Source of the DNA: an uncultured bacterium
Lineage (GTDB): Bacteria; Bacillota_I; Bacilli_A; RFN20; CAG-826
DNA: 51,662 bases
NCBI GenBank assembly: GCA_949299195.1
Contig: CASFZN010000003.1
Coordinates: forward strand, 1-51,662
Direction of reading: 5' to 3'
The notes below the pieces were generated by a model. The model saw only the letters and a program-made list of their open reading frames with translations. It ran no database searches and was not told the DNA's origin. Shown here piece by piece: positions 7,518 to 14,104 of the stretch; positions within the stretch are counted from its first letter, which is position 1, and each line of letters starts with the position of its first letter. The position numbers were made by a program, and so were the translations under genes.

Positions 7518-7790
7518 ATCCACTAATTTTTATAATATCCTTTAAATAAGCTAAATAATTTGGAGGATATTATGGAAAAAATTTTAGCAGTTTTAAAAAA
7601 CCTTGGAATCGATATAACAAAAGTCAGAAGAACAAATTATGTTGTTGAGGAAGATTATTTATATGCTTTACTCGTGCTAAGGGCATCGGAAAAAAGTTGT
7701 CCGCATTGCGGTAGTATTTCAATCATTATAAAGGAGGTTAACTATTAGAAATCAAGAAAAAAGTTAATCTTCACGACGAAAAGATTCCAA
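7455..7790 (+). mobile_element. Left part of an ISL3-like insertion sequence (truncated)
   Basis: A terminal-repeat-like start at about 7455 (ggttctctacggatttgtag) leads into a short leader and then the N-terminus of an ISL3-type transposase at 7572. The rest of the element is absent: from about 7790 the sequence belongs to an IS110 remnant in the opposite direction. Identification rests on the protein fragment and the look of the end; no right end was found. Confidence 0.45.
7572..7748 (+). pseudogene. ISL3-type transposase, N-terminal fragment
   Basis: An ATG at 7572 follows GGAGG (7562-7566); an in-frame start at 7560 would add four residues. The fragment has an amphipathic start (EKILAVLKNLGID) and the first half of a zinc-binding motif, CPHCGS, as in the N-terminal zinc ribbon of ISL3 transposases. 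A TAG stops it after about 58 residues, and the matching second CxxC, HTH and DDE parts are missing. Downstream bases to about 7790 show no useful frame. Not functional. Confidence 0.6.
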
Positions 7791-7831: not shown

Positions 7832-8518
7832 TTATCTAAAAAACGATAAGTCGAAATGAGTGTGACTCGTTTCTAACTTATAAATCAATCTCACTAGTTT
7901 ACGAGTTAAGTGAGAGAGGGCAACTCGATGTGCTTTACCTTCATTCCTCTTCTTATGATAATACTCATAAAAAGCAGGAACATGAATTAACATCATCTCA
8001 GCAGCATTCATTAACGCTTTCCTAAGATAACTTGATCCATATTTAACCATCTTGCCCTTAAAATCCTGAGTGCCAGATTGGCTACGTCCACAATCTAGAC
8101 CAGCATATGCAAGCATCTTATCTGCATTAACAAATCTAGAGAAATTTCCAAATTCAGCGATTATCGTAACGGCAGAGCATATTCCAATTCCAGGAATAGA
8201 AGCTGTCGGAGAATCTAGTTGTTTCATAATTGTTTCAATCTTAGATTCAATCATTTTAATCTCTTCATCTAATTTATCATAAAGATTAAGGATAGAAGTG
8301 ATTAATAATTTTCCAGTTTCATTAGAACAACCAATTGTGGAACTTGCTAATTCCTTAAGCTTAATAAATTGAGCAAAGGAAAACTTACCTTTAGATAATT
8401 TTCTAAGGTTATTATAGCTAGCAACATTCATATTGGCAATTCTACTAGGAATCACGTACTTATGAAGTACATATTGAGCGGTTTTAGACTTCAAGTTATC
8501 CTTAAATGATAAGGGCAT
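7832..8518 (-). pseudogene. IS110-family transposase, C-terminal part
   Basis: 228 residues matching the C-terminal Transposase_20 half of IS110/IS116/IS902 enzymes: a helical linker, then IPGIGICSAVTIIAEFG, a helix-hairpin-helix-like segment, and LAYAGLDCGRSQSG with KYGSSYLRKALMNAA. The N-terminal RuvC-like DEDD catalytic domain is missing, cut where the IS21 left end begins (about 8530). The enzyme is therefore dead. Any bridge-RNA end of the element, which in the IS110 group lies on the 5' side, is also lost. Confidence 0.85.
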
Positions 8519-8589: not shown

Positions 8590-9162
8590 ATGGAAATTAA
8601 CAATTTAAACATTGAATTGAAGAGAAAAATAATGTCCCATAGAGAAATTAATAAAAGTGCAATAGCTAGAAAATATGGTATAGATCGACATACTGTTTCT
8701 AGACATTTGAATAAAATAGAAGGCACTATAAAGAAGAGAAAACGAAGAGATTGCAAAATTATTGAATATGAAAACCAAATTATAGACATGCTTCTTGATG
8801 GATGCATAATTAAGTCTATTTACATGTTTTTATTAAATCGAGCTGCTATCGAAGACTTAAAAACATATTCTAATTTAAAACAATATGTTCGTCGTTGGTA
8901 TTCGGAATATTTTGTAGAAGGAAAGCATCTTACACCTAGATATAGATATGAGACTCCACCCGGAGAACAATTGCAATTCGATTGGGTTATCCCATTAAGT
9001 TTACATCTTAAAGATGGAACCTTACTTACCTTTAATCTTTGGAATGCAACTTTAGGTTTTAGTAGGAAACATTTCTATAAAATAACAGAAACTATCGCCG
9101 AAAAAGATGTTAGAAATTGTTTAATCGAAAGCATAATTTATTTTGGTGGAGTTCCTTCCACC
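8590..9162 (+). pseudogene. istA: IstA transposase, N-terminal half (split by insertion)
   Basis: The ATG at 8590 follows GGAGG at 8577-8581. The protein begins with a helix-turn-helix (NKSAIARKYGIDRHTVSRHL) and reaches the integrase core with its first catalytic Asp (EQLQFDWV). Frame and homology run to FGGVP at about 9162, then switch to unrelated sequence, with a stop at 9172-9174. The second Asp and the Glu are found 3.1 kb away from 12304 on. No lesion is evident within this half, so the large insertion itself is enough to kill it. Confidence 0.85.
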
Positions 9163-9179
9163 CCCGCCAAATAAAAGTG

Positions 9180-9204
9180 AGCACGATAACTATCGTGTTT
9201 TTTT
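9180..9204 (+). terminator. Hairpin with T-run at left edge of the insert
   Basis: cacgata and tatcgtg form a 7-bp stem (about 9182-9197) followed by seven Ts. It looks like the terminator of a gene whose 3' end may be the few codons just before it (ending in a TAA at 9172-9174). Confidence 0.65.
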
Positions 9205-9210
9205 GTTTTA

Positions 9211-9232
9211 GTTGGTAAAATGTTGGTAAATT
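9211..9232 (+). repeat. 11-bp tandem repeat, left copy (two units)
   Basis: gttggtaaaat followed by a second unit ending in aaatt. The same array, with three units, is at 12178-12210 near the other edge of the insert. Confidence 0.7.
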
Positions 9233-9394
9233 TTTTTAAAAATTGTTTTTTATGGTGAAAGGAGCGGTCCAATAGGACTCATTTTTTGATAGTGTTTACA
9301 AATTTTAACAATAATTGACTATAGAGTGCAAATTATAACTAGAAATTTAATTAAATTATTCTTTTAATATGTCACCCCTATCATTTAAATATTC

Positions 9395-9423
9395 TTGTCA
9401 TAATTATTAAGACGATAGATAAT
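9395..9423 (+). promoter_or_regulatory. Possible promoter of S8 protease gene
   Basis: TTGTCA, 17 bases, then GATAAT. It is about 130 bases before the protease start. The 365-base stretch 9175-9540 otherwise holds the hairpin, the repeat and part of an inverted pair (ggtccaatag at 9266-9275, complement at 11761-11770). Confidence 0.3.
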
Positions 9424-9551
9424 AAAAATATATAAAATATTTTCTAATATTTAAAAATTTTTAAGTAAATAATGGTTTTAAAGTTGATATAAACGGACTT
9501 GCATTATTTAAATATCGTTGTTTTATAGATATAAATCATGTGGAGGTTTAT

Positions 9552-11075
9552 ATGATTTCTCAAATAATTTTAACGGCACTTTTAGTATATGATATAGGTA
9601 ATATTGCTAACGTTTTAACTACAAAAGAAAATAATGAAAAAAATCTAGTTTCTTTCATTGTTAAATTAAAAGAAAAAACTGATAAAAATGAAATTTTAAA
9701 TAAATATTCTTCATCCATATTTGTTGATAGTATTGATTTTTTAAATTCTCCAAAAGAAAGTATTAAAACATTTTTAATCGACACTTCAAATTCATTGGGG
9801 TTAGAAACTTTTTTAGAATCGGATAGTTCAATTCAATCTTTTACTATCGATGAAAAAATTCAACTTTTTGATTATTCTAAAGAAAAAATCCTAGATAATA
9901 CGTTTGTATCATTAAAAGCAGAGACAATTGATGAATGGGCTGAAAATATTAGTCTTAGTAAAGCTCGGCAAATCAACGAATCAGCTTCAAGCATTAGAGT
10001 TGCTCTTCTTGATAGTGGTGTTGATGGTGATCATTCTGAATTAAGCGGTTCACTAAATAAAAATTTATCTAAAAGTTTTGCTAAAGGATTCGATGCATTA
10101 GAAGATAATTATGGACATGGAACTGCAGTTGCCGGAATAATAACAGCTAAACATGACGGTGATTTAGTTTATGGAATAAGTGATAAAGTTGATTTGGTCT
10201 CAATCCGTATGACAGATGATAAGGCTTATTCAAATTTTTCTGACATAGCTAGCGCAATAAATTATGCCGAAACAATTAATGCAGATTTAATTAATTTCAG
10301 TTATTTATTTTCTGAAAAAGCAGCAACTTATCTTGAAGAGGCTATAGATAATTTTTCTGGAATCTTTGTTTGCGCAGGAGGAAATGAAGGATATAATTTA
10401 GAAACTAATACTAAAATTCCGGCCTGTTTAGATAGCGATAATATTGTAGTTGTCGGAGCAACAAATTCTAGTGATAATATTCAAACCGATCAAAATACCG
10501 GCCCATCTGTAATCGATTTGTTTGCACCAGGTGGGAACATGTACTTGTTAAATAATACTGGCGGATATTACAAAAGCTCATATAGTGCTTATACTTCATA
10601 TGCAACACCAGTTGTTACTGGCGCCCTAGCACTATATATGCAAAATCATCAATCGGCTACGAACCAAACTATTATTAATAGACTTTTATCGACGGTAGAT
10701 AAAGGTTCTCAGTTTAATAATAAATGTGTTTCAAACGGCAGAATAAACGTTTTCAAATTGTTGCACGAAAATCATAATTATCAATATAGACGGCTAAATA
10801 CTAAACAACATGAAGTAACTTGTTCGGAATGTGATTATAAAATTAATGCTGGTCATGTCGTAGAGAGTGGTGCATTCGAAAGCGGAAGTAAACTTGCCAC
10901 ATGTTTATTATGTGGAGGCGGTGCTGAAATGGGTTTTGTGATTGGTCCAATGTCCGCTTATAATAATAACACGAGTCAAGTTATAGACGGTATTTTAGTA
11001 TTATCTGCTACCGATTATGCAAGATTTGCAAATGGAGAATTAAGTGATGAAGAAATTTTATCTTATTTTAATTAG
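9552..11075 (+). CDS. Subtilisin-like serine protease (S8), probably secreted
   Basis: 507 residues from the ATG at 9552, chosen because GGAGG lies five bases before it; an in-frame GTG at 9540 overlaps that site. A short hydrophobic N-terminus is followed by a pro-region of about 125 residues and then the S8 domain. Asp is in ALLDSGVD (about 154), His in YGHGTAVAG (about 189), the oxyanion Asn in AGGNEG (about 278) and Ser in AYTSYATPVVTG (about 349). The usual GTSMA is thus YTSYA, but the Ser is kept. The C-terminal 90 residues hold a His/Cys pattern (H-EVTCSECDY...H, then CLLCGG) that may bind metal. It sits inside a dead transposon and overlaps the next gene by 29 bases, so the two are co-expressed and perhaps act together. 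Confidence 0.88.
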   Translation: MISQIILTALLVYDIGNIANVLTTKENNEKNLVSFIVKLKEKTDKNEILNKYSSSIFVDSIDFLNSPKESIKTFLIDTSNSLGLETFLESDSSIQSFTIDEKIQLFDYSKEKILDNTFVSLKAETIDEWAENISLSKARQINESASSIRVALLDSGVDGDHSELSGSLNKNLSKSFAKGFDALEDNYGHGTAVAGIITAKHDGDLVYGISDKVDLVSIRMTDDKAYSNFSDIASAINYAETINADLINFSYLFSEKAATYLEEAIDNFSGIFVCAGGNEGYNLETNTKIPACLDSDNIVVVGATNSSDNIQTDQNTGPSVIDLFAPGGNMYLLNNTGGYYKSSYSAYTSYATPVVTGALALYMQNHQSATNQTIINRLLSTVDKGSQFNNKCVSNGRINVFKLLHENHNYQYRRLNTKQHEVTCSECDYKINAGHVVESGAFESGSKLATCLLCGGGAEMGFVIGPMSAYNNNTSQVIDGILVLSATDYARFANGELSDEEILSYFN

Positions 11076-11586
11076 TATATTATTTATCTTAACTAGTTGT
11101 GAGAATAAAGCTGATAATTTAAATAATGAGACAATTCATTTTATTCCTTCATATTCACCAGTAACGAAATCGTTAATTTTTGATAATAGCGAATTAATTA
11201 ACTTAAAAAAATATGATTCTGAAAGTGAATATAATAATGATTATAATACTTTATTAAATTCAGATATTTTAGTAAGAGACAAAAAATCGTTATCAAGTTT
11301 AGAATTTAATAATGATTCAATTTTAATTTTAGTTTCACTTTTAACGATGTATGAAAATTGTTATCCAGTTAATCTTATTAATATTGACACTAAAAAAGTT
11401 AATAATAAAGCTATTTTATCTTTTTCTTCTTTTAATGAACATGAAGGAGAAGGAGGATGTGGAATAAGTCTCCCATCCTTTCATTATTTCTTTATTAATA
11501 TTGATTTAAAAGTCAAAGATTTTAATGAAATTGAAGTTAATTATGATGTTTTGGGTGGAAATAATGTTAAAGAATTTAGTTTTTAA
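11047..11586 (+). CDS. Lipoprotein, function unknown
   Basis: 179 residues. A lipoprotein signal (MKKFYLILISILFILTSC) has its lipobox Cys at 18; the ATG at 11047 has GGAG nine bases upstream and is preferred to the GTG at 11044. The mature part is acidic and Asn-rich with no recognised domain; a stretch of small residues (EHEGEGGCGISLPSFHYFF) near the C-terminus stands out. It overlaps the protease gene by 29 bases in another frame. The pair may be translationally coupled, and this protein could be a surface partner, inhibitor or immunity factor of the protease; that is speculation. Confidence 0.7.
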   Translation: MKKFYLILISILFILTSCENKADNLNNETIHFIPSYSPVTKSLIFDNSELINLKKYDSESEYNNDYNTLLNSDILVRDKKSLSSLEFNNDSILILVSLLTMYENCYPVNLINIDTKKVNNKAILSFSSFNEHEGEGGCGISLPSFHYFFINIDLKVKDFNEIEVNYDVLGGNNVKEFSF

Positions 11587-11626
11587 AACTTAGTTCAAAT
11601 TAAAATTTAAAGTCCATTTATAATAG

Positions 11627-11668
11627 AATAAGCCTGTTATTATATTTATAAAAAACAACGGGCTTATT
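11627..11668 (+). terminator. Terminator of protease-lipoprotein unit
   Basis: aataagcctgtt (11627-11638) pairs with aacgggcttatt (11657-11668), including one G-U pair, followed by Ts. It lies 41 bases past the lipoprotein stop. Confidence 0.7.
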
Positions 11669-11822
11669 TTACTTGTAAATAAGTGAATGATTGTCCGTCT
11701 AAATCTAAAAGGCTTCGGTCTTCATCATCCAACTTAAATACGAAAGTTTAGCAAGAAAATCTATTGGACCATGATTAGTATTATTTTTTCTATTTTTGAT
11801 GAATTATTTATCTTGATTATCT

Positions 11823-12084
11823 CGATTATTTAAATAGTTCTGGAATATTTAGCTTAATGACTCTTGTTTTATCTTCGGCCTTTTTTACCACATGTCGGGT
11901 AAAACGAACTTTTACGAGTGTGTAAAGTAATGTGAAAAATGCCACAATTAGTACATTTATAATAAGACATAACAAGTTCAAGTTTTTTACATTTGAGCAT
12001 ATTTCCAACGTTGATTGTAAAGCCTATTTTAAACATATCTTTTAATGCTCGATTAGTCATAACGTAAATATAACCTTTTTCCAT
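11823..12084 (-). pseudogene. T5orf172/MUG113-like GIY-YIG-type gene, truncated and frameshifted
   Basis: The start EKGYIYVMTNRALKDMFKIGFT matches the opening of T5orf172-type (GIY-YIG-like) domains. It then passes quickly into a zinc-ribbon-like segment (CTNCG...YPTCGKK) and stops at about 11869. Shifting one base at the six-A run near 11881 continues the frame as AEDKTRVIKLNIPELFK to about 11826, a natural-looking end. Most of the nuclease fold is missing, so it is an internally deleted relic with an extra frameshift. Confidence 0.45.
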
Positions 12085-12177
12085 AATGTCTCCTAATATT
12101 TTGATTTTGAATTATATTATCTTTGAAAATTTTATTATAATGGAGTTAGTATTGAAATAGAATTAATAAAAGAAAAA

Positions 12178-12210
12178 GTTGGTAAAATGTTGGTAAAATG
12201 TTGGTAAATT
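12178..12210 (+). repeat. 11-bp tandem repeat, right copy (three units)
   Basis: Three head-to-tail units of gttggtaaaat (the last ends aaatt). Direct copy of the array at 9211-9232. Recombination between them would remove about 2.97 kb including protease and lipoprotein. Confidence 0.7.
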
Positions 12211-12303
12211 AATTTTGTATTTCATTGTATTTTGTTGTTTTTCAAATATATAAAATACGAGAATCATGGGTAAAATTAAATATAACTTTTATTCTTTTTC
12301 GAA

Positions 12304-12941
12304 CCTAAAAAACTACTTACAGATAATATGAGCGCTATTGTTGCTATTAGAGGAAATAGCAAATATGTTCACTTAACTTTTAGACAATTTGTAAAGGATA
12401 TTGGATCAGAATTGCAACTTTGCAAATGCAGACATTCATACACAAAAGGAAAAGTTGAATCTGTGAATAAGTACCAAAATTGGATTAAACCTTACGATTA
12501 TAAGTTTGAAAACAAAGAGGCATTATTCGCTACTATTCAAGAAATTTTAAATCAATCAAATTATCAAATTAATACAACAACTGGCTTATCACCAGATTAT
12601 TTATTTAAAGCTAAAGAAAAAGGAACACTTTTACCGCTACCATCAGTGTTTCTTCTGAATTCCTATCTTAATTTTAATGAAGAAAAACCGTTAATATTTG
12701 TTCGTTGATCTATTACAAAAGAGCTTGGTATGGTGTTCCTCACGAATATATTAATAAAAAAGTTCTTGTAAAAGAAGAAAATAATTTAGTTTTTGTTTTT
12801 TCCTTAAAATTAAAACTTATAGCCACATATGATCTGAAGGATGAAGGAATTCATTATGCTAAGAGTCTTTACAATATCGCAAAAGGATTTAATGAAACTT
12901 TAGATGAATTTAACAACAGAATAGATTCTAATTTGCGATAA
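12304..12941 (+). pseudogene. istA: IstA transposase, C-terminal half (frameshifted)
   Basis: The frame resumes as PKKLLTDN, which holds the second catalytic Asp, then YTKGKVESVNKYQNW with the catalytic Glu. It runs to a TGA at 12706-12708 (after PLIFVR), and the remaining C-terminal domain (IYYKRAWYGVPHEYINKKV) continues in another frame from about 12708 to the TAA at 12939-12941. A few codons expected between the two parts are missing, so a small deletion with frameshift occurred. Together with 8590-9162 it makes one full IstA. Confidence 0.85.
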
Positions 12942-12967: not shown

Positions 12968-13734
12968 ATGGAAAATCACATAAATTACGAAAGTTTAATA
13001 GAAAAATAAAGATTTCTAGGACTTGAAGGATTTGAGAATAACTTAGATGCTATGGTTCAGAAAACAAGGGATAACGAAATAGATTTTGTCGGAGCATTGG
13101 ACTTTTTAATTTCTTGCCAGATACAAATCAAAAAGGAGAATGTATATAAAGCCGCAATAAAAGTTTCTCATTTTCCTTTTATAAAACGCTTGCAGACTTT
13201 GATTTTAGTTTCCAACCTTCACTGAATAAAAGTTTAATTATGAGTTTCGCTAATCTGCAATTTCTTCATGAGAATAAGAATATTATTTTCTTTGGAACTC
13301 CAGGAACGGGAAAAACTCACTTAGCTACCGCTATTGGAATTGAAGTTGCAAGAAATAGTAAATTAACTTATTTCATTACTTGCAAAGATTTAGTTTGGCA
13401 ATTATCAAAAGCCAGAAATGAAAACAATTTAGAGAGAAGATTAAAACATTTTGCATCTTACTCTTTGCTAATTATTGATGAAGTTGGTCATGATGTATTA
13501 ACTGAATCAGAATCGAATGACCTCTTTCAGCTTTTACAAATGAGATACGAAAAACATTCAACAATTATAACCACCAATTATAACTTTTCTGAATGGTCAA
13601 AAATATTTCCTAATACAAAAATTGCTCTAAGTTCGATGATGGATCGTTTAGTACATCATTCTGAATTAATAACAATAAACGGTCCTTCTTATCGAACAAG
13701 ATTTGTAAGCGATTATTTAATAAATTGTGAATAA
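12968..13734 (+). pseudogene. istB: IstB transposition ATPase, nonsense and frameshift
   Basis: Begins MENHINYESLIEK at 12968, is stopped by TAA at 13007-13009, then reads on in frame (RFLGLEGFENNLDAMV) to about 13184, where one base is lost near ataaaacg. From there the next frame gives ADFDFSFQPSLNK and the AAA+ core: Walker A GTPGTGKTHLA and Walker B LLIIDEVGHD. An internal ATG at 13240 could in principle give a 164-residue ATPase core, but the N-terminal part is needed in known IstB proteins. Confidence 0.87.
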
Positions 13735-13766
13735 AAAGGTGGATCAAAATTAACTGTCTTTATTGG

Positions 13767-14048
13767 TAAAAAATATATTGACTTTATCAATTTTACGTTG
13801 TATTCATTTTGAATATACCAATACGCTCCTTTTATGCTCGATCCTGGTATCGACAAAACTCTTATTATTTCTTCTACATAATCATCTAATTCTGATTTCT
13901 TTTTCTTTCTTTCTTTTTTCACCTTCCCTTCATACATTTTTTTGATTGTATGTCTATCCTTTCCGAATTGACGTCCAAGCAAACTAAAATTTGGTTTTAT
14001 GTTCATACTTTTCAATATGGTTAAAGAACCAAGTAAATTTACTTCCAT
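13767..14048 (-). pseudogene. Second IS21-type istA, N-terminal fragment
   Basis: Starts at the ATG 14048 with GGAG five bases upstream. Residues include a helix-turn-helix (FSLLGRQFGKDRHTIKKMY), a basic stretch, and GSSIKGAYWYIQNEYN, the pattern of IS21-family IstA N-termini. It differs from the copy at 8590. The frame is cut at about 13767 by the right end of the other IS21 element; the few residues after that (to 13713) are read-through into that element. Catalytic domain absent. Confidence 0.65.
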
Positions 14049-14104
14049 AATCATCTCCTTTTACGGATTAGATTATAAAGTATTCCCAAAACTGGTGAAT
14101 GTTA

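What the first reader, a model, noticed from the sequence alone, without database searches (positions are those of the whole stretch)
9163..12303. Intact protease-lipoprotein gene pair carried as cargo inside a dead istA
The two halves of one istA gene (ending FGGVP, resuming PKKLLTDN) are separated by about 3.1 kb. The insert carries an S8 protease with all catalytic residues and an overlapping lipoprotein gene, both intact, while every transposon gene around them is broken. No recombinase is inside. Selection has kept the pair but not its surroundings, so it may be a small mobile cassette with a useful function such as a surface protease with partner or immunity protein.
Basis: partly seen in the sequence, partly recalled or inferred. 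Interest (0 to 1): 0.62.

Follow-up and report, generated by a model that had tools for sequence, protein, structure and literature searches.

The report
Integrase-less mobile element carrying protease pair
The insert in the broken transposase gene is a stripped-down mobile element: its two ends match the attachment ends of a conjugative element that normally inserts at the tRNA-Trp gene, and between them it carries a horizontally acquired secreted protease and an overlapping lipoprotein that may protect the cell from it.

Summary
One IS21 istA gene is split cleanly (FGGVP|KKLLTDN). The 3.15-kb insert starts with the 3' end of a tRNA-Trp gene (CCTTCCACCCCCGCCA), its terminator and two GTTGGTAAA iterons. 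It ends with three such iterons and a core that shares CCT with istA. The same 2+3 arrangement bounds a ~55.7-kb conjugative element (ICE) at tRNA-Trp in a congener (right iteron-to-core distance 104 vs 103 nt). The doublet occurs in only 4 of 144 related genomes, and in this genome only at the two insert borders. So the insert is an integrase-less, CIME-like ICE derivative at a secondary site; the host's own tRNA-Trp has a diverged 3' end. The cargo is horizontally acquired: a sister species carries it at 90% DNA identity (dS ~0.2 vs ~0.8-1.2 for core genes) at another site that is empty in its close relatives. The protease is under purifying selection (dN/dS 0.20). Protease plus lipoprotein is a recurrent module here, and intact orphan lipoproteins persist without the protease, hinting at an inhibitor or immunity role. 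Excision, mobility and lipoprotein function are inferred, not shown.

The parts
8590..9156 (+). 5' part of IS21 istA (target gene), ends ...FGGVP
   Evidence: homologous to istA of relatives; complementary to 12304-12708
9154..9169 (+). attL core: CCTTCCACCCCCGCCA, 3' end of a tRNA-Trp(CCA) gene
   Evidence: identical to tRNA-Trp 3' ends in G021, G022, G002
9182..9205 (+). tRNA-type intrinsic terminator (CACGATAACTATCGTG + T run)
   Evidence: similar terminators follow tRNA genes across the genus
9211..9230 (+). left arm: two GTTGGTAAA iterons, 11-bp period
   Evidence: same doublet at the tRNA-Trp end of the G021 ICE and in G022
9552..11075 (+). S8 subtilase with Cys/His-rich C-terminal domain (cargo gene 1)
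   Evidence: dN/dS 0.20 against G003
11047..11586 (+). lipoprotein, overlaps the protease gene by 29 bp (cargo gene 2)
   Evidence: dN/dS 0.44 against G003
11594..11674 (+). remnant of an IS end (IS30-like by my reading; family not confirmed by Pfam)
   Evidence: 79-82% identical to IS ends in G003 and G013; its first ~15 nt also follow the pair in G003
11869..12084 (-). pseudogene fragment: T5orf172 start joined to an IS91-type transposase zinc domain
   Evidence: Zn_Tnp_IS91 5e-6; 470-aa relative in G005
12178..12208 (+). right arm: three GTTGGTAAA iterons, 11-bp period
   Evidence: same triplet at the far end of the G021 ICE
12304..12306 (+). attR core CCT, overlap shared with 9154-9156
   Evidence: third iteron to core 104 nt here, 103 nt in G021
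12304..12708 (+). 3' part of istA, resumes (P)KKLLTDN
13240..13734 (+). truncated istB of the same IS21 (5' part broken)
   Evidence: IstB_IS21 1.8e-48, starts at profile position 83

Best explanation
The insert 9154-12306 is an integrase-less, CIME-like derivative of a tRNA-Trp-specific ICE family, integrated by site-specific recombination at a secondary site in istA. SHOWN: both ends match the attL and attR of a complete ICE in a congener (tRNA-Trp 3' end, terminator, 2 iterons; 3 iterons, 103-104 nt, core). The istA halves are complementary and share a CCT core. No integrase or transfer gene is inside. The host's own tRNA-Trp locus is empty and its 3' end differs. The cargo pair is far closer to a sister species' copy than the core genes are. 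INFERRED: the element came from a donor with a CACCCCC-type tRNA-Trp; with the preferred site changed, an integrase (no close match in the held genome) used istA; decay left the ends and the protease-lipoprotein pair, kept by selection on the cargo. The pair most likely works as a secreted subtilase with a membrane-anchored cognate lipoprotein that restrains it or protects against it (about 0.5 for this last step alone).
For: tRNA-Trp 3' end, terminator and iterons at the left border and iterons plus core at the right; same ends on a ~55.7-kb ICE in G021 with integrase; doublet in 4 of 144 genomes, here only at the borders, none in 200 shuffles; complementary istA halves; no ICE protein detected convincingly in the insert; no close relative of the ICE integrase in the genome, best 37%; own tRNA-Trp diverged and unoccupied; pair at 90% DNA identity in G003 at a site empty in relatives; dS 0.18-0.22 for the pair versus 0.84-1.18 for core genes; recurrent enzyme+lipoprotein order and orphan lipoproteins.
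Against: No excised circle, no copy of this same IS21 without the insert, and no other small copy with these ends was found. The shared core in istA is only 3 bp. The left spacing differs (57 vs 69-70 nt). The G003 copy of the pair lacks these ends, so the pair also moved by some other route. The genome is 95% complete, so an integrase could be missing from it.
Confidence: 0.82

Rival explanations
1. Same ends, other history: the element did not decay in place but arrived as a ready-made ~3-kb non-autonomous element, mobilised in trans by an ICE integrase.
For: No ICE gene remnant survives in it although the ICE integrase gene would start close to the left iterons; both arms are intact; the cargo was already next to an IS end in the related G003 copy.
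Against: No second small copy with these ends in 144 related genomes; IS remnants inside suggest decay; decayed ICEs that keep attL and attR are common (PMC5704250).
Confidence: 0.25
2. The pair was carried into istA by an IS or by illegitimate recombination, and the tRNA end and iterons are coincidental.
For: An IS end lies directly after the lipoprotein gene and an IS91-type transposase fragment lies nearby; the G003 copy moved without tRNA end or iterons.
Against: Iterons occur nowhere else in the genome and sit in matching number, orientation and right-arm spacing at both borders; the IS remnants lie inside the borders.
Confidence: 0.05
3. Assembly chimera joining istA to unrelated sequence.
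For: Draft genome of 22 contigs; repeats are where assemblies err.
Against: Both junctions fall on the recombination core and the istA halves are exactly complementary; base composition is uniform.
Confidence: 0.04
4. Functional rival: the lipoprotein is not an inhibitor or immunity protein but anchors, folds or activates the protease.
For: Conserved order enzyme then lipoprotein with overlapping genes; subtilase-lipoprotein complexes such as T. denticola dentilisin are known (papers).
Against: Intact lipoproteins persist where the protease is lost: G002:C4, G023:C4, G023:C7, with dN/dS below 1; no PrcB match.
Confidence: 0.35

Closest known systems
CIME (cis-mobilizable element; review PMC5704250)
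   Same: Keeps attL and attR of an ICE family but has lost integration and transfer genes; carries cargo.
   Different: Only 3.15 kb and inserted at a secondary site in a transposase gene instead of the tRNA gene; not in tandem with an ICE.
ICE at tRNA-Trp in congener G021 (C3:83.4-139.25 kb)
   Same: tRNA-Trp 3' end, terminator, 2 left and 3 right iterons, right spacing 103 vs 104 nt.
   Different: Has a tyrosine integrase and conjugation genes, ~55.7 kb, at the tRNA gene; no S8-lipoprotein pair in it.
ICEBs1 in secondary sites (Menard and Grossman, PMC3715440)
   Same: tRNA-specific element that uses other sites when the primary attB is absent; excision from them is reduced or lost.
   Different: Laboratory situation with a full ICE; here a natural, reduced element and an inferred cause.
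Dentilisin locus prcB-prcA-prtP of Treponema denticola
   Same: Subtilase gene linked to a lipoprotein gene.
   Different: Different order, no prcA here, no detectable PrcB similarity.
Effector-immunity pairs with orphan immunity genes (papers)
   Same: Two-gene cargo, second gene retained when the first is lost.
   Different: No T6SS here; inhibition not tested; gene order shared with an enzyme-partner arrangement.

Membership tests
CIME (decayed ICE) | attL and attR of an ICE family retained at the two ends | tested here: met
   tRNA-Trp end, 2+3 iterons and right spacing match the G021 ICE
CIME (decayed ICE) | integration genes absent | tested here: met
   no integrase in the insert; best relative in the genome is 37% identical
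CIME (decayed ICE) | conjugative transfer genes absent | tested here: met
CIME (decayed ICE) | can be excised or mobilised by a related ICE | not testable with these tools
   needs an integrase assay or reads from excised circles
ICE | own integrase and conjugation genes | tested here: not met
Transposon cargo or compound transposon | terminal inverted repeats of an IS at both borders | tested here: not met
   an IS end is inside, at one side of the pair only
Peptidase S8 (subtilase) | Pfam match and catalytic Asp/His/Ser | tested here: met
Bacterial lipoprotein | signal peptide with lipobox | tested here: inconclusive
   ILTSC at residues 14-18 in the sequence; Pfam LPAM_1 0.058, below its cut-off
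PrcB-like subtilase partner | sequence match to a PrcB family | tested here: not met
   no PrcB hit at E <= 10 for ten lipoproteins of this kind; fold not usable
Effector-immunity pair | second gene retained when the first is lost | tested here: met
   intact lipoproteins without protease in G002:C4, G023:C4, G023:C7
Effector-immunity pair | second protein neutralises the first | not testable with these tools
   biochemistry needed

The most novel reading that the evidence does not exclude
A class of integrase-less mini-elements in uncultured Bacilli, mobilised in trans by tRNA-Trp ICE integrases, spreads secreted enzyme plus lipoprotein-immunity pairs that share a new Cys/His-rich C-terminal domain between species, as antagonism cargo.
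Probability: 0.15. Interest if true: 0.72.

Novelty: new member of a known kind. Interest (0 to 1): 0.5.

Why it matters
It looks like a natural counterpart of what was seen in the laboratory with ICEBs1: when the preferred tRNA site is unavailable, an ICE-type element lands elsewhere, and here selection on its cargo seems to have preserved a stripped remnant. It also exposes a module without a family in Pfam or NCBIfam beyond the S8 domain itself: secreted enzymes with a common Cys/His-rich C-terminal domain, most of them directly followed by a lipoprotein gene, with intact orphan lipoproteins left where the enzyme is gone. That makes a specific inhibition or immunity hypothesis testable.

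Tried and rejected
I first took the left border for a tRNA-Ser end; ARAGORN showed tRNA-Trp(CCA). I considered that the terminator repeat at 9182-9205 was itself mobile, but similar terminators follow several tRNA genes genus-wide, so only the tRNA-Trp core and the iterons are diagnostic. The IS end at 11594 was considered as the right end of the insert, but it lies inside, with the iterons beyond it. A PrcB relationship of the lipoprotein found no support. AlphaFold models of the lipoprotein (mean pLDDT 33) and of the protease (37) were too poor to use, so no fold search was made. No S8 relative was found in viral contigs, and the iteron doublets in viral contigs lack the tRNA-Trp core and look like chance. 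No repeats or att-like ends were found around the 2.46-kb insertion that holds the pair in G003.

Full report
CHECK OF THE OBSERVATION. The window is the whole of contig C3 (51,662 bases) of a 1.17-Mb, 22-contig genome, 95% complete. The two istA halves lie at 8590-9156 and 12304-12708. Aligned with homologues, the left half ends at FGGVP and the right resumes at KKLLTDN exactly where relatives read FGGIPKEILFDN. They are one gene interrupted without loss, with CCT at both junctions (9154-9156 and 12304-12306). The S8 gene matches Pfam Peptidase_S8 (2e-34) and D154, H189 and S349 are invariant in six relatives. The lipoprotein gene overlaps its 3' end by 29 bp. The only transposase sequence inside is a fragment (11869-12084, minus strand) joining a T5orf172 start to the zinc domain of an IS91-type transposase, without the catalytic part.

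WHAT THE BORDERS ARE. CCTTCCACCCCCGCCA (9154-9169) is identical to the 3' end of tRNA-Trp(CCA) genes of congeners. It is followed by a tRNA-type terminator and two GTTGGTAAA iterons at 9211 and 9222. The right border has three such iterons (12178, 12189, 12200), then TTCGAACCT and istA. In congener G021 an intact tRNA-Trp is followed by a terminator, two iterons and at once a tyrosine integrase gene (Phage_integrase 8e-13). About 55.7 kb further on, three iterons precede a second CCTTCCACCCCCGCCA. Genes between them read as VirD4-, VirB4- and relaxase-like proteins, SSB, topoisomerase and ParA, that is, an ICE (these names are my reading of the sequences, not a profile search). The distance from third iteron to core is 104 nt here and 103 nt in G021; on the left, core to first iteron is 57 nt here and 69-70 nt in G021 and G022. 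The iteron doublet occurs in 4 of 144 related genomes: here only at the two borders, in G021 only at the ICE ends, in G022 beside tRNA-Trp with ordinary chromosomal genes following, and in G003 as a relic next to genes that neighbour tRNA-Trp in G000 and G022. In the window all five GTTGGTAAA copies are at the borders (0.15 expected; no doublet in 200 shuffles).

WHY istA. The host's own tRNA-Trp (G000:C19) ends TTCCTTTGACTCCCGCCA instead of TTCCTTCCACCCCCGCCA, and its locus carries no element. Joining the element's ends predicts an attP ...TCGAACCT|TCCACCCCCGCCA..., and the istA site is ...GGAGTTCCT|AAAAAAC.... Laboratory work shows that without its tRNA site ICEBs1 uses diverse secondary sites, some with 10-12 mismatches in 17 bp, and that excision from them is reduced or eliminated (PMC3715440). 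That the changed tRNA caused the use of istA, and that the donor had the CACCCCC type, are inferences.

CARGO HISTORY. G003 (CALVYH010000005.1, uncultured Bacilli) has the pair at 90% DNA identity over window 9395-11607, between a 316-aa thioredoxin-like gene and a YitT-like gene (gene names by my reading). In G013, G021, G005 and G022 the two flanking genes abut without the pair, and in this genome the same site (C9) is also empty. Coding dS of the pair is 0.18-0.22. For four core genes between the same two genomes it is 0.84-1.18, and for one core gene between G003 and its near relative G013 it is 0.21. So the pair moved between lineages long after the species split. The G003 copy has no iterons or tRNA end; both copies keep the start of the same IS end just after the lipoprotein stop codon (the neighbouring ORF reads like an IS30-type transposase to me, which Pfam did not confirm). 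The pair has therefore used at least two routes.

SELECTION AND FUNCTION. dN/dS between the two copies is 0.20 (0.13-0.30) for the protease and 0.44 (0.25-0.94) for the lipoprotein. The protease's C-terminal domain (invariant Cys and His residues) recurs on other secreted enzymes, including a type with a YNC[YH][AS][FY]A motif and no Pfam or NCBIfam match. Most non-redundant loci with this domain are followed directly by a lipoprotein-like gene, including one outside the genus, the Anaeroplasmataceae MAG L188. Exceptions are G003:C10:13739, followed by a membrane-protein gene, and G014:C62, with no downstream ORF seen. The domain was found in 20 of 245 genomes sampled from the order, in 11 genera. 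Homologues of this particular lipoprotein persist intact without the protease in G002:C4 (30 residues of protease tail remain), G023:C4 and G023:C7, and beside a frame-shifted protease in G015, where the contig ends within the lipoprotein gene. Their dN/dS is also below 1 (95% intervals 0.20-0.55 and 0.16-0.61). Retention of the second gene when the first is lost is what orphan immunity genes show in T6SS systems (papers listed). I therefore favour restraint or immunity (about 0.5) over anchoring or maturation (about 0.35). No experiment bears on this.

COMPARISON WITH WHAT IS KNOWN. [quoted passage not shown] The end, integrase and transfer-gene criteria are met here; mobilisation by a related ICE could not be tested. 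What is unusual is the small size, the secondary site, and a cargo of one enzyme-lipoprotein pair.

LIMITS. No excision product, no copy of this same IS21 without the insert and no read data were available. Whether the element decayed in place or arrived small is not settled: no ICE gene is recognisable in it (weak matches only), but no other small copy was found. Structure predictions failed.

Noticed in passing
G021:C3:83,422-139,250 (L152-L154): A ~55.7-kb ICE at tRNA-Trp with 2 left and 3 right iterons; a 764-aa lipoprotein-like gene (136,752-139,046) lies just inside its right end.
   Followed up: partly
G022:C10:37,289-37,397 and G003:C20:8,170-8,253: Solo left ICE arms without an ICE, beside tRNA-Trp in G022 and at the corresponding gene neighbourhood in G003; apparently relics of earlier integrations.
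   Followed up: partly
L098:4054-5951, L100:388-1924, L095:4930-6350, L102:6320-7757, L099:982-2411: A second enzyme type (YNC[YH][AS][FY]A motif, no Pfam or NCBIfam match) shares the protease's C-terminal domain and is followed by one or two lipoprotein-like genes.
   Followed up: partly
L273:1177-1731 (G002:C4), L271:1443-2003 (G023:C4), L272:2001-2573 (G023:C7): Intact orphan relatives of the window lipoprotein without a protease gene; in G002 30 residues of the protease tail remain upstream.
   Followed up: partly
window 9182-9205 and many loci: Near-identical terminator hairpins (CACGATAAYTATCGTG) follow several different tRNA genes across the genus.
   Followed up: no
window 7560-7748, 7832-8518, 13713-14054: Other transposase fragments next to the IS21: an ISL3-like start (my reading), an IS110-type fragment (Transposase_20) and a second IS21 istA start on the minus strand; the region is a graveyard of IS elements.
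   Followed up: no
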